Below are positions 18,240-53,290 of a DNA stretch of 64,000 nucleotides, in pieces. Positions within the stretch are counted from its first letter, which is position 1. Each line of letters starts with the position of its first letter. The position numbers and the translations under genes are program-made. Source of the stretch: Prevotella illustrans (lineage in GTDB: Bacteria > Bacteroidota > Bacteroidia > Bacteroidales > Bacteroidaceae); contig NZ_JAERMS010000003.1 of assembly GCF_017426725.1 (NCBI RefSeq), forward strand, positions 1 to 64,000. Reading direction: 5' to 3'. The notes under the pieces are model-generated. The model did not search any database. It was not told the origin of the DNA and saw nothing but the letters and a program-made list of their open reading frames with translations.

Positions 18240-18541
18240 GCTGAAAAAGCCCTTCGGTTTGTCGATTTTGACCCCCTTTTATGCTCAAAGCTATCCTTTT
18301 ATCGGCTAAAAGCATAGCGATGACGCCGCTAAAGCATAGCTTTCAGCCGATGAAAGAGCCGCGATGACGGCCTAAAAGCATAGCTATTGAGGGTAAAAAA
18401 GCGAAGAAAAAATACCATAAAAAACGCAACATGCTAATAATCAGTATTTTATAAACTTGCTCTAAAATCGCTTATTTTCGCCCATCTCTTTTCTTTTTCA
18501 GAATAATGCCACTTTTTTGATGGTGTATGTAAAGATAATTC
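18240..18541. repeat. Intergenic repeat locus A (GCATAGC family)
   Basis: The 840-base gap between rpsL and guaD holds three exact copies of AAAGCATAGC (18309-18318, 18331-18340, 18375-18384), two GCGATGACG-type repeats between them, and about 50 bases on a box whose minus strand reads CTGATTATTAGC (near 18434-18446). A 14-mer, TGTAAAGATAATTC (18528-18541), is shared with locus C. It lies downstream of the guaD stop. The rest of the gap holds the rpsL leader and no supported gene. Confidence 0.75.
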
Positions 18542-18691
18542 AGGGCTTAATAGAGTCTTCGTGAGGAACAAATGTCTATGCAGCCACAGTCTCCTCAATC
18601 TGTTTTTTGACATGATTTGACGTTTGACAGGGAGAGGGCAGGCCACCCGTATCGGCGGAGAATCTCTCCGCGTTCTCCACTATATTCTATT

Positions 18692-19159
18692 TTAATATTC
18701 CGTTTTGTTGCTCTTTTGTTCCCACATCCGGAAAGCTTTCTTACCTTCTTCGGGCAGCAACACCTGCATCGGTTTATAGCGATCTGCCGGCCGGCGTTCT
18801 ATCTCCTGATAGATAAAATCGTCGTCGAAGCCGATATCGGCCGCGTCTTGGCGGTTGTTGGCGTAATAGATACGGTTGATGCGCGCCCAGTAGATGGCGC
18901 CTAAGCACATCGGGCAGGGTTCGCAAGAAGTATAAATATCACATCCTGTCAAGTCGAATGTTTTAAGCAGTCGTGTAGCCATACGGATGGCATTGACCTC
19001 CGCGTGCGCAGTTGGGTCGTTGTCGAGTGTCACGCTGTTAGAAGCCTCCGCGATGACATGTCCATCTTTCACGATGACGGCGCCAAAAGGGCCGCCTCCT
19101 TTGCTGACACTTTCTTCTGATAATTGGATGGCACGGCGCATCCATGTTTCTTTTCTCAT
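18692..19159 (-). CDS. guaD: Guanine deaminase (cytidine-deaminase fold)
   Basis: A 155-aa zinc-dependent nucleobase deaminase that converts guanine to xanthine in purine salvage. The zinc site is HAE at residues 52-54 and PCPMC at 81-85. The C-terminal features AIYWARI..., DDDFIYQEI and a final EY match the GuaD branch rather than tRNA adenosine deaminase. Length is typical. It is a single gene, convergent with nothing and read toward repeat locus A. Related deaminases of other specificity are possible. Confidence 0.88.
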   Translation of the reverse strand: MRKETWMRRAIQLSEESVSKGGGPFGAVIVKDGHVIAEASNSVTLDNDPTAHAEVNAIRMATRLLKTFDLTGCDIYTSCEPCPMCLGAIYWARINRIYYANNRQDAADIGFDDDFIYQEIERRPADRYKPMQVLLPEEGKKAFRMWEQKSNKTEY

Positions 19160-19206
19160 ATTGTGATGATTATAAATTTGTGAATCACGCTATCTTTTAG
19201 CTGTCG

Positions 19207-19214
19207 CAAATATA
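19207..19214 (-). promoter_or_regulatory. Promoter -7 box for guaD
   Basis: The minus strand reads TATATTTG, matching TAnnTTTG, 48 bases before the guaD ATG. No good -33 TTTG is seen at 19-21 bases. Confidence 0.5.
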
Positions 19215-19288
19215 CTCATTCTTTTGCCAAATCGCTCTCTTTTCTGTCTCAAAATGGCGCAACGTGGTGATTATAAGGAGAAAAGTGG

Positions 19289-19296
19289 TATCTTTG
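19289..19296 (+). promoter_or_regulatory. Promoter -7 box deciding the next gene's start
   Basis: TATCTTTG ends 4 bases before the ATG at 19301. The expected transcription start lies at or just past that ATG, so either the message is leaderless or translation begins at the second in-frame ATG, 19319. Confidence 0.55.
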
Positions 19297-19318
19297 CACG
19301 ATGTTTTTAAGAATCCGA

Positions 19319-19876
19319 ATGTTTCTTGTCTGGCTACGCCGTATCGGCAAGTGCCGGGGATTTGGCGTACATTCGCCTTCGGCCTACCGTTTTATCCGTC
19401 AGGTCATCAGTTGTCATACGCCTTATCCGGCCTATTCCGTCTTGGAAAAAAATCAAAAACCGAATCCCGTTGAGCGAAAACTGGGCCGTCTGCTTTACCG
19501 CCTTTCTCGCGAAGTGGGGCAGGCCTCATGGCATGTGCTTCTGCGGTCGTCATGCGTTCCTTATTATATAAGGTGTATCGAGCATGGATGCGCTACATCT
19601 GACGTGACAGCCATGATAAGCGATAAGTCTGAAGGTCATCGTATATTGCTCATTGACGGCGGATTGACGAGGCGCGCCACGATCGATACGTTCATGGCCG
19701 GTGCCCGCGAAGGTGATTTGTTGGTCATGCGGGGCATTCATGCCAATCGGTCTAATCGCGACGAATGGCTTCGATGGGCCGCCGACCGGCGCTGCAGCGT
19801 CGGTTTTGACCTCTATTATTGTGGTATTTTGTTCTTCGACAAACGTTTCAAGCAGACGTATATCGTTAATTTTTGA
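19319..19876 (+). CDS. Methyltransferase-like conserved Bacteroidetes protein
   Basis: From the ATG at 19319 this is 185 aa. It has the GFGVHSPSAYRFI segment near the N-terminus and ends with a FDLYYCGILFFDKRFKQTYIVNF region, a pattern I associate with a Bacteroidetes family usually described as class I SAM-dependent methyltransferase-like. A classical glycine-rich SAM loop is not obvious, and the protein is shorter than typical members, so activity is uncertain. An ATG at 19301 would add six residues but sits almost on the promoter. The gene stands alone, divergent from guaD. Confidence 0.7.
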   Translation: MFLVWLRRIGKCRGFGVHSPSAYRFIRQVISCHTPYPAYSVLEKNQKPNPVERKLGRLLYRLSREVGQASWHVLLRSSCVPYYIRCIEHGCATSDVTAMISDKSEGHRILLIDGGLTRRATIDTFMAGAREGDLLVMRGIHANRSNRDEWLRWAADRRCSVGFDLYYCGILFFDKRFKQTYIVNF

Positions 19877-19946
19877 CGATAAGTGCTTGATTTTGCTTAT
19901 TTTACTTAATTTGCTATTGACACGATGAAAAATAGCAGATGAATTA

Positions 19947-19977
19947 TTTGCGATTATAATTTATTTTGCTATTTTTG
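19947..19977 (+). promoter_or_regulatory. Promoter of the DUF2795 gene
   Basis: TTTG at 19947-19950 and TATTTTTG at 19970-19977 are separated by 19 bases, a full match to the Bacteroidetes promoter. The ATG follows 35 bases later. Confidence 0.75.
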
Positions 19978-20011
19978 CACGCAAAATTGTAATTACTAAA
20001 TTCATTAAACT

Positions 20012-20233
20012 ATGTATTGGACACTTGAACTTGCGTCGAAACTGGAAGATGCGCCTTGGCCTGCTACAAAAGAAGAGTTGATCGATTATGCCATCCGCTC
20101 GGGAGCTCCGCTTGAGGTGCTTGAGAACTTGCAGGAGATTGAGGATGAGGGTGACGTGTATGAAAGTATCGAAGATATATGGCCTGACTACCCCTCGAAA
20201 GATGATTTCCTTTGGAATGATGATGAGTATTGA
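20012..20233 (+). CDS. DUF2795 family small acidic protein
   Basis: A 73-aa acidic protein (MYWTLELASKLEDAPWPATKEELIDYAIRSG...) recognisable as a Bacteroidetes DUF2795 member; function unknown. The ATKEELIDYA and LENLQEIEDEG segments are the conserved core, and the C-terminus is strongly acidic. It has its own promoter and its own terminator, so it is a single-gene unit, placed just before the T9SS cluster. Confidence 0.85.
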   Translation: MYWTLELASKLEDAPWPATKEELIDYAIRSGAPLEVLENLQEIEDEGDVYESIEDIWPDYPSKDDFLWNDDEY

Positions 20234-20262
20234 TCCCGGCCGGATCAGCCACAAAAATACCT

Positions 20263-20294
20263 AAGACCGTTGCCGTAAGACAACGGTCTTTTGG
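20263..20294 (+). terminator. Rho-independent terminator after the DUF2795 gene
   Basis: A perfect 10-bp stem (20263-20272 with 20281-20290), 8-base loop, then TTTTGG. It separates the DUF2795 gene from porP and makes a TTG start at 20295 for porP unlikely. Confidence 0.9.
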
Positions 20295-20336
20295 TTGTGT
20301 CGTATAATATTTTCAATCCTTTGGCGTTATCTATTC

Positions 20337-21278
20337 GTGAATAACGTAAAATCTTTCCTGACGATGATGGTAGGCTTGTGTGTTTGCCAGCAAGTTTCGG
20401 CGCAGTATGACGTGTCGTTCAGCCATTATTTTGATATGGAAACATCGTTCAATCCCGCTGCGGCAGGCAGACTGGATAAGCTGAATTTTACGGCAGCCTT
20501 TGCCATGGATCTGGCTGGTTTTCAGCATAATCCGCAAACAGTCTATGCTTCGGTCGACATGCCGTTCTATTTCTTGCGGAGCCATCATGGTGGTGGCGTT
20601 CTGCTCATGAATGACAAAATAGGACTTTTCACGCATCAGCGCGTAGAGGGGCAGTATGCCTTGAAGCAGAAGTTGTTAGGCGGTGTCTTGGCCGTGGGCG
20701 TGCAAGCCGGGATGATCAGCGAAAAGTTTGACGGAACGAAACTCGATGTGGAAGAAGCCAATGATCCGGCTTTCCCAACGTCGCAGGTCAATGGCACCGG
20801 CTTTGATCTTAGTGTTGGCCTACGCTATACAGCCCGCAGCTGGTATATTGGCGCGTCGGCGGTCCACCTTAATGCTCCGGTTGTTAATTTGGGGTCGACT
20901 AATGAACTTTCGATAGATCCTACTTATTATTTCGCAACAGGATGCAATATTAAGTTGAGAAATCCGTTTCTAACAATAAAGCCTTCAGCGCTCTTCCGCA
21001 CGGACGGCGTTGCCTACCGGGCTGATGTGACCGGGCGGCTGGTCTATACGCACGACGACAAGATGATGTATGGCGGATTGGCCTACAGTCCTACTAATTC
21101 CTTCACTGTATTATTAGGTGGTAAGGTGCATGGTGTCATCTTGGGTTATAGCTACGAGGTCTATACTTCGGCCATCAATCCCGGCAATGGTAGTCATGAG
21201 TTTTTTGTTGGCTACCAGCTTGACATCCATCTGGCGAAGAAAGGGCGTAACAGGCACAAGAGTGTCCGCTTGTTGTAG
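20337..21278 (+). CDS. porP: PorP/SprF family T9SS outer-membrane protein
   Basis: PorP/SprF proteins are outer-membrane components tied to the type IX secretion system. From the GTG at 20337 the protein is 313 aa with a signal peptide (VNNVKSFLTMMVG... cut after VSAQ). The mature start YDVSFSHYFDMETSFNPAAAG matches the SQYM..NPAYAG opening of the family, followed by repeated amphipathic strands. An in-frame TTG at 20295 abuts a terminator and an ATG at 20364 gives a very short signal peptide. It heads the porP-gldK-gldL-gldM-gldN unit, 42 bases before gldK. Confidence 0.88.
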   Translation: MNNVKSFLTMMVGLCVCQQVSAQYDVSFSHYFDMETSFNPAAAGRLDKLNFTAAFAMDLAGFQHNPQTVYASVDMPFYFLRSHHGGGVLLMNDKIGLFTHQRVEGQYALKQKLLGGVLAVGVQAGMISEKFDGTKLDVEEANDPAFPTSQVNGTGFDLSVGLRYTARSWYIGASAVHLNAPVVNLGSTNELSIDPTYYFATGCNIKLRNPFLTIKPSALFRTDGVAYRADVTGRLVYTHDDKMMYGGLAYSPTNSFTVLLGGKVHGVILGYSYEVYTSAINPGNGSHEFFVGYQLDIHLAKKGRNRHKSVRLL

Positions 21279-21320
21279 CGGTCTCTTTTGAAATGATTAT
21301 AAAAAAGAACAATCGATAAT

Positions 21321-22772
21321 ATGAGAAAATCAATGATACGGCTTTGCGCCTTGATGGTCCTGGCCCTGCTTACGGGGTGTCTGGGCAGCAAGAGTCTGTC
21401 GCAGTCGGGACGTGGCGGTGAAGTTGTAGGCGTAGGCGGAAGCCGGAGTTTTACGGAGCCGACACCCTATGGTATGGTAAAGGTAAACCGTGGCTATCTG
21501 CACATGGGACTGGATAGCATCGACTCGCTTTGGGGGCGTAAGAGCGTTGCGAAGGATATATCCGTCGATGGTTTCTGGATGGATGAAACCGAAGTGACCA
21601 ATTCCAAGTACAAACAGTTTGTTATGTGGGTGCGCGATAGTATTCTCCGCACGCGTTTGGCCGACCCTGCTTATGCCGGCGACGAGAGTTATCTTATCAC
21701 GGAAGATAAAAACGGCGAAGCTATTACGCCTCGTGTCAACTGGAAGAAACCTTTGCCACGCAAACCCAACGAGGATGAGCAGCGAGCTATCGAGAGTTTA
21801 TACGTCACCAATCCCGTGACGGGCGAGAAGTTGCTTGATTGGCGCCAGATGAATTATAAGTATGAAATCTACGATTATACGGCTGCCGCCCTTCGTCGTA
21901 ATCGTCTGAATCCGGAGGAACGCCAGCTCAACACCGATGTTACCGTAGATCCCAATGAGGTTGTGATGATTTCTAAAGATACGGCTTATATTAACGACGA
22001 GGGCAAGATTGTGTCGGAGACGATTGATCGACAGCTCACCGGCCCGTGGGATTTCCTTAATACTTACATCGTTAATATCTATCCCGACACGACATGTTGG
22101 GTCAACGACTTTACCAATTCGGATAATGAGATGTATCTGCGCAACTATTTCAGCAACGATGCTTATAATGATTATCCCGTTGTCGGTGTTACGTGGGAGC
22201 AGGCCAACGCTTTCTGTGCTTGGCGCACCAATTATTTGTTGGCCGGTTTGGGGCCTGAAGCTCGCTTCGTACAGCGCTATCGCCTGCCCACCGAAGCCGA
22301 GTGGGAATATGCGGCTCGTGGTAAAGAAGGTACCGAGTTCCCATGGGACAATAAGGATATGAAGAATGGGAAAGGTTGTTTCTATGCCAACTTCAAGCCC
22401 GATCGTGGCAATTATACCGAAGATGGTAATCTGATTACAAGCAAAGTGGGTACTTATGGTGCCAATAGTAACGGCCTTTTCGACATGGCGGGCAATGTAG
22501 CAGAGTGGACAAGTACCATTTTCACCGAGTCAGGTCTACAGGCCATGAACGACCTTAACCCAACATTGCAGTACAATGCCGCCAAGGAAGATCCTTATCG
22601 GTTGAAGAAAAAGAGCGTGAGAGGTGGTTCGTGGAAAGATCCCGAAAGCTATATCCGCAGCGCCTGGCGCACGTGGGAATATCAGAATCAGCCCCGTTCC
22701 TTTGTAGGTTTCCGCTGTGTGCGCAGCATGGCAAGTTCAATGACCGGTAAACAACCCAAAAGCAAAAAATAA
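21321..22772 (+). CDS. gldK: T9SS ring lipoprotein GldK/PorK
   Basis: GldK/PorK forms, with GldN/PorN, the large periplasmic ring of the type IX secretion system. The 483-aa protein has a lipobox LTGC with the lipidated Cys at residue 20, then an FGE-sulfatase-like fold: WMDETEVTNSKYKQF, VTWEQANAFCAWR, RLPTEAEWEYAARG, GLFDMAGNVAEWTS and VRGGSWKDP. The fold is used structurally here; enzymatic activity is not expected. It is followed by gldL after 5 bases. Confidence 0.95.
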   Translation: MRKSMIRLCALMVLALLTGCLGSKSLSQSGRGGEVVGVGGSRSFTEPTPYGMVKVNRGYLHMGLDSIDSLWGRKSVAKDISVDGFWMDETEVTNSKYKQFVMWVRDSILRTRLADPAYAGDESYLITEDKNGEAITPRVNWKKPLPRKPNEDEQRAIESLYVTNPVTGEKLLDWRQMNYKYEIYDYTAAALRRNRLNPEERQLNTDVTVDPNEVVMISKDTAYINDEGKIVSETIDRQLTGPWDFLNTYIVNIYPDTTCWVNDFTNSDNEMYLRNYFSNDAYNDYPVVGVTWEQANAFCAWRTNYLLAGLGPEARFVQRYRLPTEAEWEYAARGKEGTEFPWDNKDMKNGKGCFYANFKPDRGNYTEDGNLITSKVGTYGANSNGLFDMAGNVAEWTSTIFTESGLQAMNDLNPTLQYNAAKEDPYRLKKKSVRGGSWKDPESYIRSAWRTWEYQNQPRSFVGFRCVRSMASSMTGKQPKSKK

Positions 22773-22777
22773 ACGAT

Positions 22778-23566
22778 ATGACAAGATATAGTAAATTCAA
22801 TATAGTCTATCATTTACAGAAATGGATGGACAGCGTGCCCGGTCAGACTTTTCTCAACTATGCTTACAGTTGGGGTGCGGCCATCGTTATTTTTGGTACG
22901 CTTTGTAAGCTGACTCATATTCCCGGAGCTAACTTCTGGCTCTTCCTGGGTATGGGTACAGAGGTGGTTGTTTTCTTCCTTTCGGCTTTCGATCGGCCAT
23001 TTGATAAGACAGCCGAGGGGCGCGAACTGCCCATGCATCTTGGTGTTGCGGAAGGAGAAAGCGAGGATATGGTTGCTTCGCAATCAGCTGTTGTTCGACC
23101 TGTAACCAAGCAGGCTGCGGACTATTCGGCAGTCATTCTGTCGCAACAGTCTGCTGCTGAAGCTCAGGTAGCGGCTGTTCAGTCTGCCGTTGCGCCGTCT
23201 ATGGCTGCGCCTTCTTCAAATCTGGAGATGGCAGAGGCCCAGAAGAATTATGTAGAAGAGTTGCAGAAGCTTACGGTTGTATTGAGTAAGGTGGGTGAAC
23301 AGAGCAGCCGATTGACTCGTGATAGCGAAGAGATGGAAAATCTGAATCGTACGTTGACCGGCATTTGCAAAGTTTATGAGATGCAACTCAAGAGTGCCAG
23401 CCAGCAGATTGGTACCATCGACCAGATCAATGAGCAAAGCAAGATGATGGCACAGCATATCGAGCAGTTGAATAAAATTTACACCCGTATGATTGAGGCC
23501 ATGACGATTAATATGCGATCGGCGGCACCCGGTATGACCGGCACGGGACAGCAAAATGGTTTCTGA
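22778..23566 (+). CDS. gldL: T9SS/gliding motor protein GldL/PorL
   Basis: GldL and GldM form the inner-membrane, proton-driven motor that powers T9SS. The 262-aa protein has two membrane segments at about 20-65 (LNYAYSWGAAIVIFGTLCKL and FWLFLGMGTEVVVFFLSAF) with a Glu in the second, then a long cytosolic region that becomes helical (about 135-240, with many Gln/Glu/Met). An Ala/Ser/Val/Gln-rich stretch at about 100-150 links the two. Confidence 0.95.
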   Translation: MTRYSKFNIVYHLQKWMDSVPGQTFLNYAYSWGAAIVIFGTLCKLTHIPGANFWLFLGMGTEVVVFFLSAFDRPFDKTAEGRELPMHLGVAEGESEDMVASQSAVVRPVTKQAADYSAVILSQQSAAEAQVAAVQSAVAPSMAAPSSNLEMAEAQKNYVEELQKLTVVLSKVGEQSSRLTRDSEEMENLNRTLTGICKVYEMQLKSASQQIGTIDQINEQSKMMAQHIEQLNKIYTRMIEAMTINMRSAAPGMTGTGQQNGF

Positions 23567-23621
23567 GGCGTTGTGTAATGCTGATTGACGCGCCTGCAAC
23601 TTTATTTTAAGATGAAACACA

Positions 23622-25175
23622 ATGGCTATTAAAAAACGCCCGATATCTCCTCGCCAAAAGATGATCAACCTGATGTACGTTGTCTTGATGGCTATGTTGG
23701 CACTTAACGTGTCGACAGAAGTGCTTGACGGCTTTTCGCTCGTAGAAGACAGCATCAATCGTACGACGGGTAACTCTTCAACAGAGAATTCCGCTATCTA
23801 CGAAAACTTTGCTTTGCAGATGAAAAGCAATCCGCAGAAAGTGAAGGAGTGGTTCGATAAGGCTACGACCGTGAAGCGGATGAGCGACTCGCTCTATCTG
23901 TTCGCACAGCAACTGAAGGAGGAAATCGTGAAAGAAGCTGACGGACCGGATGGCGATGTGCATAATATTCGGCATAAAGACGACTTGGAAGCAGCCAGTC
24001 AGGTGATGCTTTCTCCCCTCACCGGGCAGGGAGGGAAACTCTATCGGGCCATCAACGCTTATCGTGAACGTATTCTTTCGATGGTCACTAATCCGATGCA
24101 ACGCAGAATTATTGCCAGTAACCTCTCGACAAAACTGCCCCGTCAGCGTCGCACCGTGGGTCGCAACTGGCAGCAATATATGTTTGAAGACATGCCAGTA
24201 GCCGCTGCGGTTACGCTACTTTCAAAACTTCAGAGCGACGTGCGCTACGCTGAAGGCGAGGTACTCCATACGCTTGTGGCCAATATTGACGTGAAAGATA
24301 TCCGTGTCAACAAGCTTAACGCATTTGTAATTCCTGAAAAGACGACGCTCTATCCGGGCGAAACGTTTTCGGCCAGCATTGTGATGGCGGCTGTCGACAC
24401 GACGTTGCAGCCACAGATTTTTATCAATGGCAGCCGTGTTAATATCCGTGGCAGCAAGTATAGCTTCGCGGCGGGTGGCGTAGGACAACACTCTTTCGGT
24501 GGTTATATCTTGATGCAAAACGGCGCCGGTGAAGTATTGCGTCGCAATTTTACGCAGAAATATGAGGTAATTCCTCAACCCAGTGGCGCCACCGTGGCAG
24601 CCGATATGATGAATGTGTTGTATGCCGGCTATCAGAATCCTGTTAGTATTAGTGTGCCGGGCGTACCGCAGAATGCCATTCACGTATCGATGACCGGTGG
24701 AAGTTTGACGGCGAAAGGCAACGGACGCTTTACGGCGGTACCGGCGGCTGTCGGCAAGGAAGTTACTTTTCATGTTTCGGCCACCGATAAAGGGCGGACG
24801 CGCCAGATGGGAAGTTACGCCTTCAAGGTGCGAAAGCTGCCCGATCCGACTCCTTATCTGGCTTTGGGTGGCGATCGGTTTAAAGGTGGTCCGCTGGCCA
24901 AAGGCTCGTTGCTGTCGCTTCACCACGTGAATGCGGCCATTGATGACGGATTGCTCGATATAGAATTTCGTGTTTTGAATTTTGAAACGGTGTTTTATGA
25001 CAATATGGGCAACGCTGTTCCCATGGTGAGCAATGGTGCCAGTTTCTCCGATCGGCAGATAGAGGCTTTTCGTAAGTTGTCACGCAATCGTCGATTTTAT
25101 ATAAAAGTAACGGCGCAAGGGCCTGATGGCATTGTCCGAAAGTTGCCCGGAGCCATGGAAGTGATAGTAAGATAA
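23622..25175 (+). CDS. gldM: T9SS/gliding motor protein GldM/PorM
   Basis: GldM spans the inner membrane once and projects a long periplasmic rod toward the GldKN ring. The 517-aa protein starts MAIKKRPISPRQKMINLMYVV with the membrane segment at about 16-35 and EVLDGF just after it, the family signature. A helical domain and then beta-sandwich domains follow to the end. It lies 55 bases after gldL and 10 before gldN, so all four are co-transcribed. Confidence 0.95.
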   Translation: MAIKKRPISPRQKMINLMYVVLMAMLALNVSTEVLDGFSLVEDSINRTTGNSSTENSAIYENFALQMKSNPQKVKEWFDKATTVKRMSDSLYLFAQQLKEEIVKEADGPDGDVHNIRHKDDLEAASQVMLSPLTGQGGKLYRAINAYRERILSMVTNPMQRRIIASNLSTKLPRQRRTVGRNWQQYMFEDMPVAAAVTLLSKLQSDVRYAEGEVLHTLVANIDVKDIRVNKLNAFVIPEKTTLYPGETFSASIVMAAVDTTLQPQIFINGSRVNIRGSKYSFAAGGVGQHSFGGYILMQNGAGEVLRRNFTQKYEVIPQPSGATVAADMMNVLYAGYQNPVSISVPGVPQNAIHVSMTGGSLTAKGNGRFTAVPAAVGKEVTFHVSATDKGRTRQMGSYAFKVRKLPDPTPYLALGGDRFKGGPLAKGSLLSLHHVNAAIDDGLLDIEFRVLNFETVFYDNMGNAVPMVSNGASFSDRQIEAFRKLSRNRRFYIKVTAQGPDGIVRKLPGAMEVIVR

Positions 25176-25185
25176 ATCAATTGAT

Positions 25186-26232: not shown

Positions 26233-26263
26233 TTATTTTATTTTCATTTAAATAATAGAGAGT

Positions 26264-26893: not shown

Positions 26894-26905
26894 TAAGAAG
26901 TTCTT

Positions 26906-30444: not shown

Positions 30445-30463
30445 ACCTTGATAAATTATGGTA

Positions 30464-30804: not shown

Positions 30805-30851
30805 GAGGTCAAAGCATAGCTTTTACACGCTAAAAGCTATGCTTTGACCTC
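30805..30851. repeat. Repeat locus B: perfect 21-bp inverted repeat
   Basis: Arms 30805-30825 and 30831-30851 are perfectly complementary around the 5-base loop CACGC. Each arm holds the family core AAAGCATAGC (30811-30820) or its complement GCTATGCTTT (30836-30845), and another GCTATGCTTT follows at 30858-30867. Positions 30804-30831 are identical to 42443-42470 in locus C. It lies downstream of the FadL-like gene. The rest of 30445-31157 holds no gene I can support. Confidence 0.95.
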
Positions 30852-30942
30852 CTTATCGCTATGCTTTTATCGGCCCGAAAGGCTGCTTTCAGGTGGCTAT
30901 TTTCAAAGTTTCAGGCTGTTTTTGATAGGTATGAACTTCATA

Positions 30943-30983
30943 AAAACAAATAAATCGCTGATTATCAGCGATTTATTTGTTTT
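30943..30983. repeat. Repeat locus B: perfect 20-bp palindrome
   Basis: Arms 30943-30962 and 30964-30983 are perfectly complementary around a single central base. The centre is GCTGATTATCAGC, the same box found imperfectly in loci A, C and D. It may act as a terminator for the FadL-like gene (174 bases after its stop), a protein-binding site or a cruciform. Confidence 0.95.
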
Positions 30984-42420: not shown

Positions 42421-42682
42421 GTACGTCAAAGCATAACTTTTGCGAGGTCAAAGCATAGCTTTTACACGCTCAAAGGGCTGCTTTTACATGCCGAAAAGGC
42501 TGCGATGATAGGCAAAAAGCAGGCTAAAATGAGGGTTTTAGAAGCTGAAATGGAGGGTGAAAAAAGAGAAATGATTGATTATCAGCATGTTATTAAAAAC
42601 GCAAATAATCGGCTTTTTTCGAGTCAATCGCCGATTATTTTGAAATAACGCAGCCAGTAAAGGCCTTTTGTAAAGATAATTC
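42421..42682. repeat. Intergenic repeat locus C (GCATAGC family)
   Basis: In the convergent 496-base gap between the M16 and transporter genes. It has AAAGCATAGC at 42450-42459, an AAAGCATAAC variant at 42428-42437, AAAGGGCTGCTTT at 42472-42484 (shared with locus D), and a TGATTATCAGC box near 42576. Positions 42443-42470 are identical to 30804-30831. An 11-bp hairpin (42603-42613 with 42630-42640) and TGTAAAGATAATTC at 42669-42682 (shared with locus A) complete it. Confidence 0.8.
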
Positions 42683-44113: not shown

Positions 44114-44302
44114 GGAAAAATGATGCTTTGGTGGTCTCGTTTTACGTATATTAACACTGCGTGCGCCCTTTTTCCGCATGTTTTCTATGGCTGTCGTGGG
44201 GGAAAAGACTGCCGTTTCCGTCATTAACGGTAGGAAGTGACGGGGCGGACGGAGGGCTTTCGCCCTGCCGCCACATGAACATACTCTGATAAAATATGAA
44301 TA

Positions 44303-45052: not shown

Positions 45053-45112
45053 CGTTATGATGGCGACGCGACGCGATCGATCGTGGCGTTTCATTTACTT
45101 CGTTGTCATTCT

Positions 45113-45144
45113 GCCGGATTGCGTCAGCCATGGCGCAATCCGGC
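45113..45144 (+). terminator. Hairpin after the barrel gene
   Basis: A perfect 11-bp, GC-rich stem (45113-45123 with 45134-45144) around a 10-base loop, about 60 bases past the stop. T-content beyond it is moderate. Confidence 0.7.
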
Positions 45145-45156
45145 CGTTGTTTGTTG

Positions 45157-45183
45157 TTGTTTGGCATGTTTTTTGTACTTTTG
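45157..45183 (+). promoter_or_regulatory. Promoter of the DUF3737 gene
   Basis: TACTTTTG at 45176-45183 matches the -7 box. The nearest suitably spaced -33 element is a GTTG about 19 bases upstream, in a T/G-rich run, so that half is weak. Confidence 0.5.
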
Positions 45184-45235
45184 CTATTCATAATGAAAGG
45201 ATGATTTTTTAATTAAAGATTTATGTAACTCAAAA

Positions 45236-46114: not shown

Positions 46115-46171
46115 AGCAGACGAAAGGTGGGGATACTTGCACATTGAATATTTGATACTTTACATCATATT

Positions 46172-47371: not shown

Positions 47372-47403
47372 CGGGAACCGATTTTTAGAAAAGAAAACAA
47401 TAA

Positions 47404-47453
47404 AAGCAAAGAGGCTGACAACGTATCATGACGCGTTGTCAGCCTCTTTGCTT
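47404..47453. terminator. Bidirectional 20-bp terminator hairpin
   Basis: A perfect 20-bp inverted repeat (47404-47423 with 47434-47453), 10-base loop, between two convergent genes. Its stem core AGAGGCTGA also occurs in the terminator of mdh at 49841. Confidence 0.95.
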
Positions 47454-47469
47454 GAATAGAATAAGGTGT

Positions 47470-49764
47470 TTAGAGCTGAGGCGTTCCCCAGTATTTCACC
47501 TGTACCTCTTTGCCTTGGGCATTGTAGACGTGCAACCGCAGCTGTCCGCCGTTGTGATCGAAGAATTTTACCTCGATGGGATGTAAACCGGCTTTCATCG
47601 CGTGTTGACCTATGATCTCGCGAGGAGAGTGCTCTCCGTCGTTGTCTACAACCATCTGATGGTCGATTTTCAGCGTACTGCCGTCGTCGGAAAGTAGCGC
47701 AAAGGTGTAGATACCATCCTCCGGCACCTGAATATAACCGGTGATGATAAGTCCGATATTGCCTTTCACGCTGTCGGGAATCATCACTCCATTTACAGTA
47801 TAGCAGCCGTTGACGGGCGCGGCTTCGATTCCGGCACAGTCGGCACCGGTGTATTCGTGCCATTCCGCACTGAGACCTTCTGACAAATCAGCCACTTCGA
47901 TAGCCTCGCTTGGCGTTTCCTTGCGGTAGGAAACTTTGACGAAAGCGTCCTTTCGACCATCGGTGGCAAACGAACGGAAGATAAAATCAGTGTTGCGGTC
48001 GATCTCGAAGGGGCCCGTATAGCGTTTAGAATGTTCGTTGGGCAGTGTTCCGTCGGTGGTATAGCGTATCACCGCCTGCGGATCTTGGCAGTTGACGCTG
48101 ACCGTTCCTCGGTCTCCCGTGAAGACATTGGTGGTGTGGAAGCCGGTCAGATCGGGCAGACGATAGGTGACGCCCAACTTCTGAAGGCGCGTGTAATGCT
48201 TGATGAGGCGGCAGTTGAAGTCCTCGAACTTCGCGTTCGCGGGCTTACCCCAACCCAATTCGGCCACGGCCAGCATGCGGGGGAATGCCATATACATCAT
48301 GCGGTTGCGCGATGGCACCCATTCTGTCCACAAATTACCCTGCACACCCAGTATAAGCGCTTTCTCAGTAGTCGTCAAATTGTCGGGTTGTGGGTTGAAA
48401 GCATAGAGGTTGATGAGCGATTTACCACCCTCATCGTAGTCTAAATAGAACGGAACGTTGGGCGTACAGATGAACTTATTGCCGTGACTGGTGGTCTGTT
48501 TCATGGCATTGGGTGCCCAAGTGCGCCACCACATGACGGTAGAAGTCGCGCCGAGGCCGCCTTCTATGATTTCATCCCAGCCGATCATGGTACGTCCGTG
48601 CTGGTTGAAGAACCGTTCCATCTCGTGATTGAACCACGATTGCAGTTGCGATTCGGTCTTCAACCGGTGCGATTCCATGCGTTTCTGGCAGTCGGGGCAC
48701 TGCTTCCAGTTCTTCATATCCACTTCGTCGCCGCCTATGTGTACGTATTCATAGGGGAAAAGGTCGAAAACCTCGCTCCATACATCCTTACAGAACTGTA
48801 GCATCTTATCCTTTCCGGGACACATCGGGGTTGTAAAGACGGTGCCCCAGCCGGTCTGTGGGAAGCACGAAAGGCCGTCGTAGTTGGCGATGGCAGCCAA
48901 ACTGTGGCCCGGCATGTCGATTTCGGGAATGACATCAATGCCCCGTATTTTGGCGTAGGCTACGATATCGCGCACCTGTGCCTGTGTATAGAAGCCGCCA
49001 TATTCCTGCTGCCCCTGCCCATTCGTGCGAATCTTGTCCGCGGGAAGATTGAAATCGGGATTGTCTTCGGCCACGGCCCGCCGCATGCAGACCGAGTCCT
49101 GGTTGTTGAACGTGCGCCAGCCGCCGCGTTGCGTGAGCAGAGGATATTTCTTTATTTCGATTCTCCAGCCTTGATCGTCGGTCAGGTGCCAGTGGAACTT
49201 GTCTATTTTATAGAGCGCCAGCACGTCGAGCAATTCTTTCACCTCGTCTACCGAGAAGAAATGGCGCGAGCAGTCGAGCTCCATTCCACGCCATTCGAAG
49301 CGGGGTTGGTCGGTAATGTTGACATAGGGTAGGGTCCATCGGCGGACGTCGACAGCCTGACGGGACTCGATGTCGTCGGGAAAAAGCTGGCGTAAGGTTG
49401 CTATTCCGTTAATGACGCCACGATAGTCGTTGCCCGTGATGGCCACGCCTTGCGCGTCAACACGCAACCGGTAGCCTCCGGCGGCACCCTGTCCGGTCAT
49501 GGAAAGGCGAATTCGGCCCTTGCCGTTGTTCTTTACCTTAACCTGACAGCCCGTCGGCCGGGCCAGCATGGCGGCCAGATAGTCGGCCGCGGGATGCAGT
49601 TGCGCGCTGCTACAGCCAATGGTGATTTGCCCGGAGGGTAGGGTGTAGGTGCCCGAAGCCCAGCTCACGCTGCTTGGAACGGGGATGATGGCCGGTTGTT
49701 GAGCCGCGGCTACCATGCCTAAAGCCAGCAGGCAGAGCGTGAAAAATGTTCGGATTGTTTTCAT
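47470..49764 (-). CDS. GH20 beta-N-acetylhexosaminidase with PA14 domain
   Basis: The 764-aa secreted enzyme (signal peptide MKTIRTFFTLCLLALGMVAAAQ) removes terminal GlcNAc or GalNAc from glycans. An N-terminal GH20b domain (about 22-150) precedes the TIM barrel with HWHLTDDQGW and the catalytic pair Asp346-Glu347 in HIGGDEVD. After about residue 545 comes a chitobiase C-terminal-like sandwich (YTTDGTLPNEHSKRYTGPF) and then a PA14 domain (about 630-760, with GYIQVPEDGIYTFALLSDDG), often glycan-binding. Host or mucin glycans are likely targets by inference. Confidence 0.95.
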   Translation of the reverse strand: MKTIRTFFTLCLLALGMVAAAQQPAIIPVPSSVSWASGTYTLPSGQITIGCSSAQLHPAADYLAAMLARPTGCQVKVKNNGKGRIRLSMTGQGAAGGYRLRVDAQGVAITGNDYRGVINGIATLRQLFPDDIESRQAVDVRRWTLPYVNITDQPRFEWRGMELDCSRHFFSVDEVKELLDVLALYKIDKFHWHLTDDQGWRIEIKKYPLLTQRGGWRTFNNQDSVCMRRAVAEDNPDFNLPADKIRTNGQGQQEYGGFYTQAQVRDIVAYAKIRGIDVIPEIDMPGHSLAAIANYDGLSCFPQTGWGTVFTTPMCPGKDKMLQFCKDVWSEVFDLFPYEYVHIGGDEVDMKNWKQCPDCQKRMESHRLKTESQLQSWFNHEMERFFNQHGRTMIGWDEIIEGGLGATSTVMWWRTWAPNAMKQTTSHGNKFICTPNVPFYLDYDEGGKSLINLYAFNPQPDNLTTTEKALILGVQGNLWTEWVPSRNRMMYMAFPRMLAVAELGWGKPANAKFEDFNCRLIKHYTRLQKLGVTYRLPDLTGFHTTNVFTGDRGTVSVNCQDPQAVIRYTTDGTLPNEHSKRYTGPFEIDRNTDFIFRSFATDGRKDAFVKVSYRKETPSEAIEVADLSEGLSAEWHEYTGADCAGIEAAPVNGCYTVNGVMIPDSVKGNIGLIITGYIQVPEDGIYTFALLSDDGSTLKIDHQMVVDNDGEHSPREIIGQHAMKAGLHPIEVKFFDHNGGQLRLHVYNAQGKEVQVKYWGTPQL

Positions 49765-49792
49765 TTAGAGTCTATTTGATGGATTGTTGCCA

Positions 49793-49823
49793 CAAAAGTA
49801 CGGTTTATTTTGCTTATTTCCAA
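49793..49823 (-). promoter_or_regulatory. Promoter of the GH20 gene
   Basis: The minus strand has TACTTTTG at 49800-49793 and a TTG at 49823-49821, 20 bases upstream, a good Bacteroidetes promoter match. Confidence 0.6.
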
Positions 49824-49840
49824 CCGATTGGAGCAAAAAG

Positions 49841-49873
49841 AAGAGGCTGAACCTTCAACGGATTCAGCCTCTT
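49841..49873 (-). terminator. Terminator of mdh
   Basis: A perfect 11-bp stem (49841-49851 with 49863-49873) with an 11-base loop. On the minus strand it is followed by CTTTTTG. It is 28 bases past the mdh stop. Confidence 0.9.
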
Positions 49874-49900
49874 GCTTATCATTGTGTTTGATAGAGCTGC

Positions 49901-50893
49901 TTAGAGATTGGGATTCATTTCCTTCCACTGGTCAACCGGAGGAACGATTCCGAGCGCGACAATCTCGTCGCGCATCTTGCAAAGGTGCTCGTAAGACTTC
50001 TGCAAACCGGCCAGTTCCTCTTCGGTTCCTGTAGGCTCCGTGAAGTGGACACCCGTCTTGTCGATGGTCGTCGGCATAGCCATCATGACGTTTTTGAAGC
50101 CCAGCTTTTCGTTGCAAACATAGCAACCTGCGGGCAAGGTGAACGTTGCGCCACCCATGGCAGCCTCGATCATCTTCACGGCGTTATAGGCCGGACTTTG
50201 GAAAGAGCTGCGACCGCGCAGTTTGATGATGTTGGAACCGCCCTGAACAGTGTGGTGTTTAATTTCTTCCCAACGCTCGTCGCTGAGGCCCATCTCTGCC
50301 AATGGCTTACCGTCAACCTTCACCTGCGAGGCGAAAACAGCCATCTGCTCGCCGTGGCCACCGTAAGTGTGGGCACCGGTAACCGTGTCCTGTTGTACGC
50401 CGAACTCTTCAGCCAAAGCCTGTTGTAGGCGGGTAGAGTCGAGAGCGGCCAACGAAGTCAGCTGGTTGGGCTTCAAACCGGAGTGAATCAAGGTGGTGAG
50501 AGCGGTAACATCGGCCGGGTTGAAGATCACAACCACGTGCTCTACTTCGGGGCAATACTTCTTGATGTTGTCACCAAACTCGGCGGCAATCTTACAGTTA
50601 CCTTTCAACAGGTCTTCACGAGTCATGCCTTCCTTGCGAGGAGCGCCACCCGAAGAGATGATATACTTGGCACCCGTGAACGCCTTTTCAGGGTCAGTGG
50701 TCCAGCTGAGCTTAGCGCCCGGGAACGCGCATTGTGCCATCTCGTCGTAAACGCCGTGCACACCCGGCTCAAAGATATCGTAGAGACAAATGTTGGGAGT
50801 AAGACCGAGCATTAAGGCGCTCTGTACCATGTTGGAACCGATCATGCCGCCTGCGCCGACGATGACCAGTTTGTCATTCGTTAAATAATTCAT
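49901..50893 (-). CDS. mdh: Malate dehydrogenase
   Basis: A 330-aa NAD(P)-dependent enzyme that interconverts malate and oxaloacetate, part of the reductive branch used by succinate-producing Bacteroidales. The Rossmann motif GAGGMIGSNM is at residues 13-22, the SSGGAPRKEGMTR loop near 80-92 contacts substrate, and the proton relay His is in GAHTYGGHGEQM (about 173-184). Length is normal for the Bacteroidales form. Own promoter and terminator. Confidence 0.95.
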   Translation of the reverse strand: MNYLTNDKLVIVGAGGMIGSNMVQSALMLGLTPNICLYDIFEPGVHGVYDEMAQCAFPGAKLSWTTDPEKAFTGAKYIISSGGAPRKEGMTREDLLKGNCKIAAEFGDNIKKYCPEVEHVVVIFNPADVTALTTLIHSGLKPNQLTSLAALDSTRLQQALAEEFGVQQDTVTGAHTYGGHGEQMAVFASQVKVDGKPLAEMGLSDERWEEIKHHTVQGGSNIIKLRGRSSFQSPAYNAVKMIEAAMGGATFTLPAGCYVCNEKLGFKNVMMAMPTTIDKTGVHFTEPTGTEEELAGLQKSYEHLCKMRDEIVALGIVPPVDQWKEMNPNL

Positions 50894-51041
50894 AACTGTA
50901 AACTTATTATTAATTTAAATATGTATGGATGCACAAACAGCGTTGAAACGAAATCTTTAGGTTTCGATTCTTTTGTAAAGATAGTGCCAGTGAGCGCAAT
51001 GAAAGCTTGCTTTCAAATTGCCGAGCGCCGCCTATCTTCTG

Positions 51042-51049
51042 CAAAGATA
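51042..51049 (-). promoter_or_regulatory. Promoter -7 box for mdh
   Basis: The minus strand reads TATCTTTG, 149 bases before the ATG, implying a long leader. A related TATCTTTA lies nearer (about 50975) and could be an alternative. Confidence 0.45.
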
Positions 51050-51088
51050 ATAAAAAAAGCGTATCGTTTTCATTTATGCCGTCTTTAA

Positions 51089-51120
51089 TTTGTTGTTAAT
51101 TCTTAAAAAGAATATCTTTG
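51089..51120 (+). promoter_or_regulatory. Promoter of pepP
   Basis: TTTG at 51089-51092 and TATCTTTG at 51113-51120 are separated by 20 bases, a full consensus match, 24 bases before the ATG. Confidence 0.8.
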
Positions 51121-51144
51121 TAAAGTCTATATTACAAAATAAAG

Positions 51145-52944
51145 ATGAAAGAGCAAATACGTCAACGATTGGCAGCCCTGCGCTCACTGATGAGCCGCGA
51201 AAAGATGGCTGCGTTTATTTTTCCCAGTACAGACGCGCATAACAGCGAATATGTGGCCGACCATTGGAAGATCCGCGAGTGGATTTCGGGTTTCGACGGC
51301 TCAGCCGGCACCGTTGTCGTGACGATGAATGAGGCCGCTCTATGGACCGATTCGCGCTATTTTCTGGCTGCCGAAAAGCAGTTGGAGGGCACGGGAATCG
51401 TGCTGATGCGCCTGAAAATGCCCGGTACGCCCACCATTGCCGAATGGCTGGGACGGGTCTTGGCCGACTCCGAGAGCAAGGAAGTGGGGTTAGACGGATG
51501 GGTGAACAGCGCCGCCGAGGTAGACGCGCTTACGCAAGAGCTGCGCAAACAAGGCGGACTGACCCTGCGTGTGAACCTCGACCCGATGCGGACGCTGTGG
51601 ATCGATAGGCCGCCCATCCCGCAAAATCCTGTCGAGGTGCAGCCCATAGAGCTGGCCGGCGAAACCGCCGCGTCCAAACTAGCGCGCGTACGCGAGGCGC
51701 TGCGTGCGCAACACTGCGACGGCATGCTCATGTCGGCCCTCGACGACATCGCATGGACGCTCAACCTGCGTGGCACCGACGTGCATTGCAACCCCGTCTT
51801 CGTGGCCTATCTCGTGGTGGAACCCGAACGGACGACTCTCTTTGTGCAGCCCGAGAAGCTGACGGATGAGGTAAGGGATTACCTGACGACACAGGGCGTG
51901 GCGGTAAGAGACTACAGCGACGTGGCCGACTACCTGCGGCACGACTATTTCGCCTACAACATCCTGATGGATGAGAACGAAACCAACAGCTATCTGATGG
52001 CCTGTATGAAGGACAACCGGGCGCAGGTGGTGCGACGGCCGTCGCCCGTTCCGCAGATGAAAGCCGTGAAGAACGAAGCCGAAATCGACGGTTTCCGGCG
52101 AGCCATGACCCGTGACGGCGTGGCCATGGTGAAGTTTCTGAAATGGCTGCGCCCTGCCGTTGAGGCCGGAGACGTGACCGAAATGACCGTCGCCGATAAG
52201 CTGCTGGCCCTGCGCAGGGAACAACCGCTCTTCCGAGATATATCCTTCGACACGATAGCGGGCTACGCGGCCCACGGTGCCATCGTGCATTACGAGGCTA
52301 CACCGCAGACCGACGTGGCGTTGAAGCCTTGCGGGTTCGTGCTTATCGACAGTGGAGCGCAGTATCAAGATGGCACCACCGACATCACTCGTACCGTGGC
52401 CTTGGGGCCCGTGACCGAGGAAGAGAAACGTGTCTATACGCTCGTGCTGAAAGGTCATATACAACTGGAGTTGGCCAAGTTTCCCGAGAACGTCAGCGGC
52501 ACGCAGCTCGACGCCCTGGCCCGTGAGGCGATGTGGCGAGAGGGGATGAACTATCTCCACGGTACGGGCCATGGCGTGGGAAGTTATCTCAACGTGCACG
52601 AAGGCCCGCACCAGATCCGGATGGAGTACAAACCGGCGCCATTGCGGGCCGGTATGACCGTGACCGACGAACCGGGAATCTATTTGGCCGGCCGTTTCGG
52701 CGTGCGCATCGAGAATACTTTGCTCATTTGCCCCTATCTGGAAACCGAGTTCGGCCGTTTTCTCCAAATGGAATCGCTCACCCTTTGTCCCATTGATACG
52801 GTCCCCATTGCCCGCGAACTGCTGACCGACGAGGAAATAGCGTGGCTCAACGACTACCATCAGCTCGTCTACGACCGCCTCTCGCCGTTGCTCAATGCCG
52901 ATGAACAGGCTTGGCTGCGCGAAGCTACCCAGCCGTTGGCGTGA
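51145..52944 (+). CDS. pepP: M24 Xaa-Pro aminopeptidase
   Basis: The 599-aa cytosolic enzyme removes an N-terminal residue that precedes proline. It has two creatinase N-terminal-like domains (about 1-310) and a C-terminal pita-bread domain. The metal ligands are Asp in DSGAQYQDGTTD (two Asp), His in GTGHGVGSYLNVHEG, and Glu in TDEPGIY and RIENTL, all present between about 410 and 535. The three-domain length matches the larger APP1-like aminopeptidase P. Confidence 0.94.
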   Translation: MKEQIRQRLAALRSLMSREKMAAFIFPSTDAHNSEYVADHWKIREWISGFDGSAGTVVVTMNEAALWTDSRYFLAAEKQLEGTGIVLMRLKMPGTPTIAEWLGRVLADSESKEVGLDGWVNSAAEVDALTQELRKQGGLTLRVNLDPMRTLWIDRPPIPQNPVEVQPIELAGETAASKLARVREALRAQHCDGMLMSALDDIAWTLNLRGTDVHCNPVFVAYLVVEPERTTLFVQPEKLTDEVRDYLTTQGVAVRDYSDVADYLRHDYFAYNILMDENETNSYLMACMKDNRAQVVRRPSPVPQMKAVKNEAEIDGFRRAMTRDGVAMVKFLKWLRPAVEAGDVTEMTVADKLLALRREQPLFRDISFDTIAGYAAHGAIVHYEATPQTDVALKPCGFVLIDSGAQYQDGTTDITRTVALGPVTEEEKRVYTLVLKGHIQLELAKFPENVSGTQLDALAREAMWREGMNYLHGTGHGVGSYLNVHEGPHQIRMEYKPAPLRAGMTVTDEPGIYLAGRFGVRIENTLLICPYLETEFGRFLQMESLTLCPIDTVPIARELLTDEEIAWLNDYHQLVYDRLSPLLNADEQAWLREATQPLA

Positions 52945-52946
52945 AC

Positions 52947-53012
52947 AGATGACAGCTTCAGGCCGGTGCGTTGTCCGGACCGGAAAAGTGTTAAAGACTG
53001 TCATCTTTTTTG
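52947..53012 (+). terminator. First terminator after pepP
   Basis: A perfect 9-bp stem (52947-52955 with 52998-53006) with an inner CCGG-type pairing in the loop, followed directly by a T-run at 53006-53011, beginning 2 bases after the stop. Confidence 0.8.
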
Positions 53013-53030
53013 ACATCATCTCCCAAATGA

Positions 53031-53090
53031 CGCTCTTATTTTCGTTCAAGTCCATCCTTTGTCGGTTTTAAACGAAAATAAGGGCGTTTT
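53031..53090 (+). terminator. Second, 16-bp hairpin after pepP
   Basis: A 16-bp stem with one G-T pair (53031-53046 with 53071-53086), 24-base loop, then TTTTG. It lies 19 bases after the first terminator, and starts the repeat locus D region. Confidence 0.8.
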
Positions 53091-53097
53091 GTTATAT

Positions 53098-53290
53098 TGT
53101 TGATAATCAGCTTGTTGAGTGCGTATTTTTGTAAAATGACAGTGTTTGCTGTCAGCAAAATGCCTGTTTTTGGCCTCCATTTGCAGCTCTTTTGCAACGC
53201 AAAAGGGCTGCTTTGACTTGCTCATCGCTGTGCTTTTAGCTCCTGAAAGCATAGCTTTGACAATTTTAGGAGCGTTTTCTATGCTTTTCA
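53098..53290. repeat. Intergenic repeat locus D (GCATAGC family)
   Basis: In the 690-base gap between pepP and rpsU. It has a TTGATAATCAGC box near 53100-53111, AAAGGGCTGCTTT at 53202-53214 (shared with locus C), the core AAAGCATAGC at 53246-53255 and degenerate relatives such as GCTGTGCTTT and CTATGCTTTT. Beyond it, 53300-53510 holds no supported gene; a 7-bp GGAAGTG/CACTTCC repeat lies at 53441-53456. Confidence 0.7.

What the first reader, a model, noticed from the sequence alone, without database searches (positions are those of the whole stretch)
18280..53290. Dispersed intergenic repeat family: GCATAGC clusters plus a TGATAATCA box, always beyond a gene 3' end
Four separate gaps (18.28-18.46, 30.80-30.99, 42.42-42.64, 53.10-53.29 kb) hold exact copies of AAAGCATAGC or its complement: three in A, three in B, one in C, one in D. 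Eight in about 64 kb compares with roughly 0.1 expected by chance. Each locus also has a near-palindromic box around TGATAATCA. Read from the nearest gene 3' end (guaD, FadL-like, transporter, pepP) the order is the same each time: stop codon, 110-240 bases, box, then cluster. I noticed no exact 10-mer inside a coding region. Possible roles are 3'-end stabilisers or terminators, nucleoid-protein sites, or a non-autonomous mobile repeat.
Basis: seen in the sequence. Interest (0 to 1): 0.85.

Follow-up and report, generated by a model that had tools for sequence, protein, structure and literature searches.

The report
Spaced-out intergenic palindrome arrays
The repeats are parts of short arrays of 22-base palindromes that sit between genes around the chromosome of many Prevotella-type bacteria, most likely landing pads for an unknown chromosome-organising protein whose recognition letters differ between lineages.

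Summary
The eight 10-mers are real (0.19 expected) but are fragments of a larger object. The real unit is a 22-bp palindrome, frame AAAG-N5-CTTT, repeated in register, usually 4-5 times. 858 kb of this genome hold 62 arrays, 0 in the reversed control, none in a called ORF. Gene context is that of any long gap (13 of 58 lie between two gene starts), so "beyond a 3' end" is no rule. The TGATAATCA box sits in register but is lineage-specific (37 of 62 here, 3 of 59 and 2 of 21 in two relatives). The strict two-unit frame occurs in 112 of 398 genomes of the genus and 9 outside it in a draw of 393 from the order; its 5-bp core differs between lineages. There is no base-pair covariation, against RNA stabilisers or terminators. 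Arrays are predicted curved and avoid each other (2 intervals under 6 kb, 13.6 expected). Best reading: phased multi-dimer sites for an unidentified architectural DNA-binding protein. About 40% of arrays here ride on a recently dispersed 370-bp repeat. No protein was found. Main rival: a selfish MITE-like repeat.

The parts
18284..18393 (.). Locus A: array of 5 palindromic 22-bp units
   Evidence: PWM scan; R1 match E 4.1e-20
18175..18543 (+). Locus A: class A dispersed 370-bp element that contains the array and box
   Evidence: blastn to the typed consensus, 91.6% identity over positions 2-370
18435..18443 (+). Locus A: box (TAATAATCA), 41 nt from the array
30808..30895 (.). Locus B: array of 4 units; a 21-bp perfect inverted repeat (30805-30851) covers the first two
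30943..30983 (+). Locus B: box (TGATTATCA, 30959-30967) at the centre of a hairpin with 20-bp arms
   Evidence: fold z -8.4
42425..42512 (.). Locus C: array of 4 units, with further degenerate 22-nt registers up to the box
42576..42584 (+). Locus C: box (TGATTATCA), 63 nt from the array
42603..42640 (+). Locus C: stem-loop beyond the box
   Evidence: fold (z -2.4)
53155..53264 (.). Locus D: array of 5 units
53101..53109 (+). Locus D: box (TGATAATCA), 45 nt from the array
53030..53087 (+). Locus D: terminator-like hairpin downstream of pepP, aligned in G316 with some paired changes (by eye)
   Evidence: z -5.9

Best explanation
Each locus is an array of usually 4-5 palindromic sites (frame STAAAAG-N5-CTTTTAS, period 22 bp, about two helical turns). 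The arrays lie between transcription units, on average 14 kb apart in the sample. Shown: the array and its phasing, its intergenic place in this genome, its short-range avoidance of other arrays, its presence in many genomes of one genus, and a 5-bp core that differs between lineages inside a constant A/T-tract frame. Inferred: dimers of one sequence-specific protein bind successive palindromes on one face of an already curved helix, oligomerise or wrap the DNA, and make a nucleoprotein node that helps organise or insulate the chromosome. The core would be the part read specifically and would change with the protein. In this genome some arrays have also been spread as cargo of a 370-bp dispersed repeat (class A).
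For: Array statistics: 62 arrays in 858 kb, reversed control 0, units 3:7, 4:15, 5:38, 6:2, none in a called ORF. A core-blind PWM finds 62 in G000, 59 in 949 kb of G316 and 21 in 400 kb of G374, reversed control 0 each. Strict two-unit frame in 112 of 398 genus genomes, with differing cores. At one locus with both flanks orthologous in G316, 15 of 20 core bases but 1 of 32 frame bases differ (4 of 60 in the left flank). Spacing: CV 0.51 versus 0.84 +/- 0.10 in a length-matched draw of gaps (0 of 5000), intervals under 6 kb 2 versus 13.6. The avoidance holds between unlike subfamilies with 55% mean array identity. Predicted curvature 83 versus 36 degrees in shuffles. No pairing covariation. 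A triple-unit pattern with GC-NNN-GC core lies in 2 of about 2.9 million viral contigs.
Against: No binding protein was found and none could be proposed by co-occurrence. With only gaps of 400 or 500 bp and over as the null the spacing CV is not unusual (P 0.18 and 0.54), although most of those gaps (49 of 68, 46 of 58) hold an array and may be long for that reason; intervals under 4 kb stay low there (0 versus 2.8 and 2.1; P 0.008 and 0.02). As a CV it did not replicate in G316 (0.80, n=55; gap-based P 0.99 at thresholds 150-300 and 0.02 at 400). In G316 29 of 62 arrays overlap ORFs of my crude caller (broken down in the report). Of 9 arrays with collinear flanks in G316, 4 have no array there. 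Only 112 of 398 genus genomes hold the strict frame, so it is not needed throughout the genus. G316 has arrays of up to 19 units. Class A behaves like a mobile repeat. The curvature table was recalled, not fetched.
Confidence: 0.45

Rival explanations
1. Selfish, non-autonomous dispersed repeat (MITE-like, as BrickBuilt): the array is the set of transposase-binding sites, spread by an unknown transposase; target immunity or selection keeps copies apart, and copying makes cores alike within a genome.
For: Class A: 25 near unit-length copies, 86-92% to consensus, no hit in 949 kb of the close relative G316. Two class A sites (C51:201227, C51:209764) have no array in G316. Identical two-unit blocks recur in G155, G169 and G371 (places listed).
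Against: No terminal inverted repeats or clear target duplications in 25 copies (by eye). The 201227 difference (877 bp) lies between short direct repeats and does not match the element ends. Frame and register persist at orthologous sites: 5 of 9 arrays with collinear flanks have an array in G316. Class A not found in the plasmid and phage collections.
Confidence: 0.3
2. Site-specific recombination or rearrangement sites: arms AAAAG/CTTTT with an asymmetric 5-bp overlap alike within a genome, used by a tyrosine recombinase to shuffle array-bounded segments.
For: The 11-kb segment C51:18418-29661, with arrays beyond both ends in G000, lies in G316 between the two arrays at locus C. 5 of 10 breakpoints hold an array in G000 and 12 of 20 sides in G316 have one within 1.5 kb, one array counted twice.
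Against: 53 of 103 gaps of 250 bp and over hold arrays anyway, so 5 of 10 is no excess over long gaps. Two junctions without an array in G000 have arrays on both sides in G316. Several sides lie near contig ends. Tandem 22-bp sites are unlike known crossover sites (recalled).
Confidence: 0.1
3. RNA-level 3' element: transcribed hairpins that terminate or stabilise messages.
For: Arrays fold better than shuffles (mean z -3.5, 76 folds), as palindromes must. Box side faces a 3' end in 11 of 13 non-class-A cases. Hairpin at locus D aligned in G316 with paired changes. In G374 cores are near-palindromic, so units there could pair almost fully.
Against: Pairs in A1: 69.4% versus 69.5% shuffled, covariation score 0.137 versus 0.139. 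Neighbouring cores are the same more often than complementary (43 versus 31 in G000, 69 versus 29 in G316). 13 of 58 arrays lie between two gene starts.
Confidence: 0.08
4. REP/RAYT system.
For: Abundant intergenic palindromes with lineage-typical sequence. Y1 transposase genes (PF01797) are present in 5 of the 11 array-rich genomes searched.
Against: PF01797 has no match in the other 6 of 11 array-rich genomes (G000, G374, G402, G101, G062, G341), and is present in 4 of 7 genomes without the frame.
Confidence: 0.02

Closest known systems
BrickBuilt MITE (Porphyromonas gingivalis, PMC4596501; abstract, passages and sections 5, 8, 9 seen)
   Same: Strictly intergenic, tandem imperfect short units with conserved and variable positions, leader and tail sequence, same bacterial order (recalled).
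   Different: There: 23-nt unit, 1 to 22.8 units, 19 copies, IS5-like inverted ends GAGACCTTCGCA, found in P. gingivalis and P. gulae, with only weak tail hits in two Prevotella species. Here: 22-nt unit, mostly 4-5 units, about 165-225 copies, no such ends near arrays, a frame found in many genomes of the genus with differing cores.
Noc and SlmA binding sites (nucleoid occlusion; passages of PMC4726725 seen)
   Same: Dispersed palindromic chromosomal sites for a dimeric protein.
   Different: Single palindromes (14 bp for Noc), about 70 and 24-52 per genome, depleted in the terminus. Here tandem arrays, more numerous, no terminus depletion seen in G374 (21 arrays), no protein known.
REP elements with RAYT transposases (abstract and passages of PMC3733652 seen)
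   Same: Many short intergenic palindromes, some families species-specific.
   Different: No Y1 transposase in 6 of 11 array-rich genomes; strict 22-bp tandem phasing.
Plasmid iterons and phased operators (recalled)
   Same: About 22-bp tandem sites on one face of the helix.
   Different: Hundreds of chromosomal copies between ordinary genes.

Membership tests
BrickBuilt | 23-nt tandem unit | tested here: not met
   Unit is 22 nt in G000, G316 and G374
BrickBuilt | IS5-like terminal inverted repeat | tested here: not met
   0 such 12-mers in 858 kb G000; 7 in 949 kb G316, none within 600 bp of an array
BrickBuilt | Intergenic location | tested here: met
   0 of 62 arrays in a called ORF in G000; unclear in G316
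BrickBuilt | Unit sequence homology | not testable with these tools
   Unit is given only as a figure in the paper
MITE | Terminal inverted repeats and target-site duplications | tested here: not met
   25 class A copies compared at both ends, none evident by eye
MITE | Precise empty sites in relatives | tested here: inconclusive
   One absent site differs by 877 bp between short direct repeats, not at element ends
REP/RAYT | Y1 (HUH) transposase in the genome | tested here: not met
   None in G000 and in 5 more of 11 array-rich genomes; present in the other 5
REP/RAYT | GTAG or CGTC tag beside the palindrome | not tested
   -
Nucleoid-occlusion type sites | Dispersed palindromic sites | tested here: met
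Nucleoid-occlusion type sites | Depletion around the terminus | tested here: not met
   G374: arrays present near the maximum of cumulative GC skew; small sample (21 arrays in 20 stretches)
Nucleoid-occlusion type sites | Bound by a dedicated protein | not testable with these tools
   -
Structured RNA or terminator | Compensatory base changes | tested here: not met
   (not informative in G374)
Structured RNA or terminator | Match to a known RNA family | tested here: not met
   Only tRNAs in the window at gathering thresholds

The most novel reading that the evidence does not exclude
A chromosome-organising system of a whole genus: arrays of about five phased palindromes act as spaced architectural nodes. 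Their A/T-tract frame is fixed by DNA shape and helical phase. The 5-bp core is a fast-evolving address that the arrays of a genome follow as the specificity of one unknown protein drifts.
Probability: 0.3. Interest if true: 0.92.

Novelty: new variant of a known kind. Interest (0 to 1): 0.72.

Why it matters
Little is known of how Bacteroidota chromosomes are folded and kept from the division site (recalled). More than 150 marked places per chromosome with a built-in natural experiment, the same frame with a different core in different lineages, would let the protein be fished out and its specificity tracked. If it is selfish DNA instead, it is an unusual one: phased, mutually avoiding, and with cores alike within a genome.

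Tried and rejected
Taking the 10-mer as the family signature: in 60 relatives it is near control level in most (raised in G006, G010, G013), because cores differ. RNA hairpin per unit and between neighbours: no covariation; fold z-scores are what palindromes give. Box as a defining part: rare near G316 and G374 arrays. Always 3': background orientation. REP/RAYT. BrickBuilt ends. Deletion between like repeats as the cause of avoidance: unlike subfamilies also avoid each other (against an exponential expectation). Phage or plasmid cargo; most matches are 34-36 bases long (about 25-base spacing) and were not pursued. Rfam: only tRNAs at gathering thresholds. Gap-based spacing test in G316 is not reliable because 29 of 62 arrays fall in ORFs of my caller. 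Literature: the listings showed nothing on such arrays in Prevotella (of 15 papers all were listed; of 38; sequence strings gave 69 papers, the 20 listed are on unrelated subjects).
Full report
WHAT IS THERE. In the whole genome there are 309, against 7 for the reversed pattern. Among the first 100 listed, close neighbours on one strand lie 22, 44, 66 or 88 bases apart and close opposite-strand neighbours at distances such as 19, 25, 41 or 47, which is what a 22-base register of palindromes gives. A position weight matrix grown from these sites is a 19-bp palindrome, S-T-A-A-A-A-G-C-NNN-G-C-T-T-T-T-A-S, plus 3 bases, repeated every 22 bases. The 10-mer is one common form of it. The four window loci are arrays of 5, 4, 4 and 5 such units.

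HOW MANY AND WHERE. In 858 kb of this genome (28% of 3.09 Mb) there are 62 arrays and none in the same sequence read backwards. Units per array: 3 in 7, 4 in 15, 5 in 38, 6 in 2. None lies in a called ORF. Orientation of neighbours: ++21, --13, divergent 13, convergent 11, and 4 at stretch edges left out. The contigs were picked from listings of matches, most stretches running from a contig's first base, two (C9, C41) set around listed sites; the sample is therefore rich, holding 116 of 309 10-mers and 55 of 152 strict two-unit frames in 27.8% of the bases. Scaling by these gives about 165-171 arrays in the genome, by length 223. Of 103 gaps of 250 bp or more, 53 hold an array. Arrays between two gene starts are 13 of 58, as expected from 22 of 103 such gaps. 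So the 3'-end rule seen at four loci is background. My gene calls are a simple longest-ORF rule (90 codons or more).

IN G316 the same crude caller puts 29 of 62 arrays over an ORF (G316 sample GC 54%, G000 48%). By my reading of that list 10 are in ORFs under 140 codons, 13 in the first part of an ORF, where the start is uncertain, and 6 elsewhere. Of these 6, Pfam finds nothing in four, a LuxR-type domain in one whose last 62 bases overlap the array, and a SpoU methylase in one around a weak array call. So intergenic placement is firm in G000 and only probable in G316. In G374 1 of 21 arrays is over an ORF.

THE BOX. TGATAATCA or a near form lies 41-45 or 62-66 nt from the array edge, two or three further 22-base registers, in 34 of the 37 distances found. 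It occurs within 110 nt of 37 of 62 arrays in this genome (4% expected), of 3 of 59 in G316 and of 2 of 21 in G374. It is therefore an accessory of this lineage. Outside class A the box side faces a gene 3' end in 11 of 13 cases; in class A in 12 of 20. At B it is the centre of a 20-bp hairpin, and at D it lies beside a terminator-like hairpin that aligns in G316 with paired changes. This part may well be tied to transcription ends.

CLASS A. Locus A belongs to a 370-bp dispersed element: 25 copies of at least 340 bp, 86-92% to the consensus, in 858 kb of G000 and no hit in 949 kb of G316. G316 is 80-90% identical in the main DNA blocks. The ends are sharp to a few bases, without inverted ends or evident target duplications; some copies share further flanking repeats. 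So about 40% of the arrays here (25 of 62) are cargo of a recently spread repeat.

THE FAMILY ACROSS SPECIES. 70 arrays were scored in the 109 loci, 44 of them with 4 units. A pattern that ignores the core, AAAG-N5-CTTT-N9-AAAG-N5-CTTT, occurs in 112 of 398 genomes of the genus, with up to 526 copies; 49 have ten or more by my count, G367 left out because its control is as high (154 versus 143). The reversed control is 3 or more in ten genomes (G017, G117, G264, G326, G333, G354, G362, G367, G384, G386) and 0-2 in the rest. In a draw of 393 genomes of the order it occurs in 11, two of them of the same genus; outside the genus only G580 (16) and G749 (7) have more than one. A sequence model of the array gave 184 of 398 in the genus at E up to 0.001 and 19 of 393 in the order, two of those in the genus and the other 17 weak; only nine candidates per genome were scored, so those counts are not densities.

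CONSTANT FRAME, VARIABLE CORE. Cores differ between lineages: CATAG and GGCTG here, CAGCC, CACAG and CTGCC in G316, TTCAA and TGCCA in G374, and, from at most ten places listed per genome, CTTAC in G341, GTCAG in G334, CGGCT in G016 and G107, ATGCC in G402. Some genomes share one: G099 and G273 also have CATAG. Within a genome two or three cores dominate but others occur. With the core positions set to zero the matrix still finds 62, 59 and 21 arrays with no control hit. At C51:204914 flanks and register match G316 C14:6247, yet 15 of 20 core bases and only 1 of 32 frame bases differ. At C51:233473, also with flanks found on both sides, the figures are 11 of 20 and 4 of 32 in the better register. 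C51:245741 is nearly identical to G316 C6:13785 including its cores, which looks like recent transfer or contamination. Two loci are few; the core spectra carry the claim. Of 9 G000 arrays with collinear flanks in the G316 sample, 5 have an array there and 4 (30808, 201227, 209764, 252092) do not; of 6 G316 arrays looked up in G000, 5 do.

DNA OR RNA. Within units, pairing equals that of shuffled columns (69.4 versus 69.5%, covariation 0.137 versus 0.139). Neighbouring cores are not preferentially complementary in G000 and G316; in G374 most cores are near-palindromic and the test says nothing. I conclude that selection acts on the DNA. The frame puts A and T tracts every 11 bp, and a wedge model predicts 83 degrees of bend over 88 bp against 36 in shuffles (93% of 56 arrays above the 95th percentile); in G316 67 against 39 (35% of 51), with an AA-only model 78 against 30 and 69 against 33.

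SPACING. Arrays are further apart than chance. Mean interval is 14 kb and CV 0.51 (49 intervals); drawing gaps matched for contig and length, with 300 bp taken off gaps that hold an array, gives 0.84 +/- 0.10 (0 of 5000), and intervals under 4 or 6 kb number 1 and 2 against 10.2 and 13.6. Avoidance holds between class A and others (2 under 6 kb, 8.6 expected if exponential) and among others (0, 7.2 expected), whose arrays are 55% identical on average, so loss by recombination between like repeats does not explain it easily. Against this: with only gaps of 400 or 500 bp and more as the null the CV is not unusual (P 0.18, 0.54), though intervals under 4 kb remain scarce. In G316 the CV is 0.80, with one 116-kb interval; 2 of 55 intervals are under 4 kb, but gap-based tests there are unreliable.

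REARRANGEMENTS. Between G000 and G316 the four window loci are all places of difference: a synteny break at A (near contig ends in G316), 1.97 kb present only here at B, a translocated 11-kb segment at C, 3 kb more in G316 at D. Of ten breakpoints found in 175 kb of aligned blocks, five hold an array in G000, and 12 of 20 sides in G316 have one within 1.5 kb. Since half of all long gaps hold arrays, this does not show that arrays cause the breaks.

MECHANISM. Palindromic sites two helical turns apart on one face of a curved helix, usually four or five, are the layout expected for cooperative binding by dimers of one protein (inference). Dispersed, mutually avoiding placement between genes, near absence from viral contigs (for one core type) and lineage-typical cores fit an architectural or chromosome-organising role with protein and site evolving together (inference). 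No protein is identified. A selfish repeat with its own binding sites and target immunity would explain several of the same facts and is the main rival.

NOVELTY. The library listings showed nothing on such arrays in Prevotella. BrickBuilt is the nearest described thing and fails on unit length and ends. I call it a new variant of a known kind (dispersed intergenic repeat arrays), with a bolder reading open.

Noticed in passing
window 50969-51059: Another dispersed repeat between two gene starts: about 45 matches listed in G010, some in tandem 66-77 bases apart, and several in G316. It holds an imperfect palindrome around AATGAAAGCTTGCTTTCAAATT.
   Followed up: partly
L216, C51:245741-245828 with 90-bp flanks: About 265 bases nearly identical (one mismatch) to G316 C6:13785 while most shared DNA is 80-90% identical: recent transfer or contamination, with G316-type cores.
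   Followed up: no
L406 (G580) and L405 (G749): Two genomes outside the genus hold the frame with their own cores (16 and 7 matches), G580 in runs of at least three units; the Prevotella-trained matrix did not score them.
   Followed up: partly
L365-L384 (G374): 16 of 21 arrays have GTATATTTA or its complement in the flanks, perhaps a lineage-specific accessory like the box here.
   Followed up: no
window 18529-18541 and right ends of other elements: The right-end motif GTAAAGATAATTC, read backwards, resembles a Bacteroidota -7 element (TAnnTTTG, recalled), so the element may be transcribed inward or carry a promoter.
   Followed up: no
G316 C2:34847-35263 (L261): One array in G316 has 19 units, two have 10, unlike the 3-6 in G000.
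   Followed up: no
G316 C2:156308-156440 (L267): A weak six-unit array call lies inside an ORF with a SpoU methylase domain matched in two stretches: chance, or an in-frame insertion.
   Followed up: partly
window 19-56 region and flanks of several class A copies: A further dispersed sequence, TTGATACTTGTAAACCTGTCCCC, on the right side of many class A copies and also away from arrays.
   Followed up: no
window 53907-54791: A XerC-like tyrosine recombinase gene (PF00589) is the next gene beyond locus D; probably the housekeeping recombinase.
   Followed up: no
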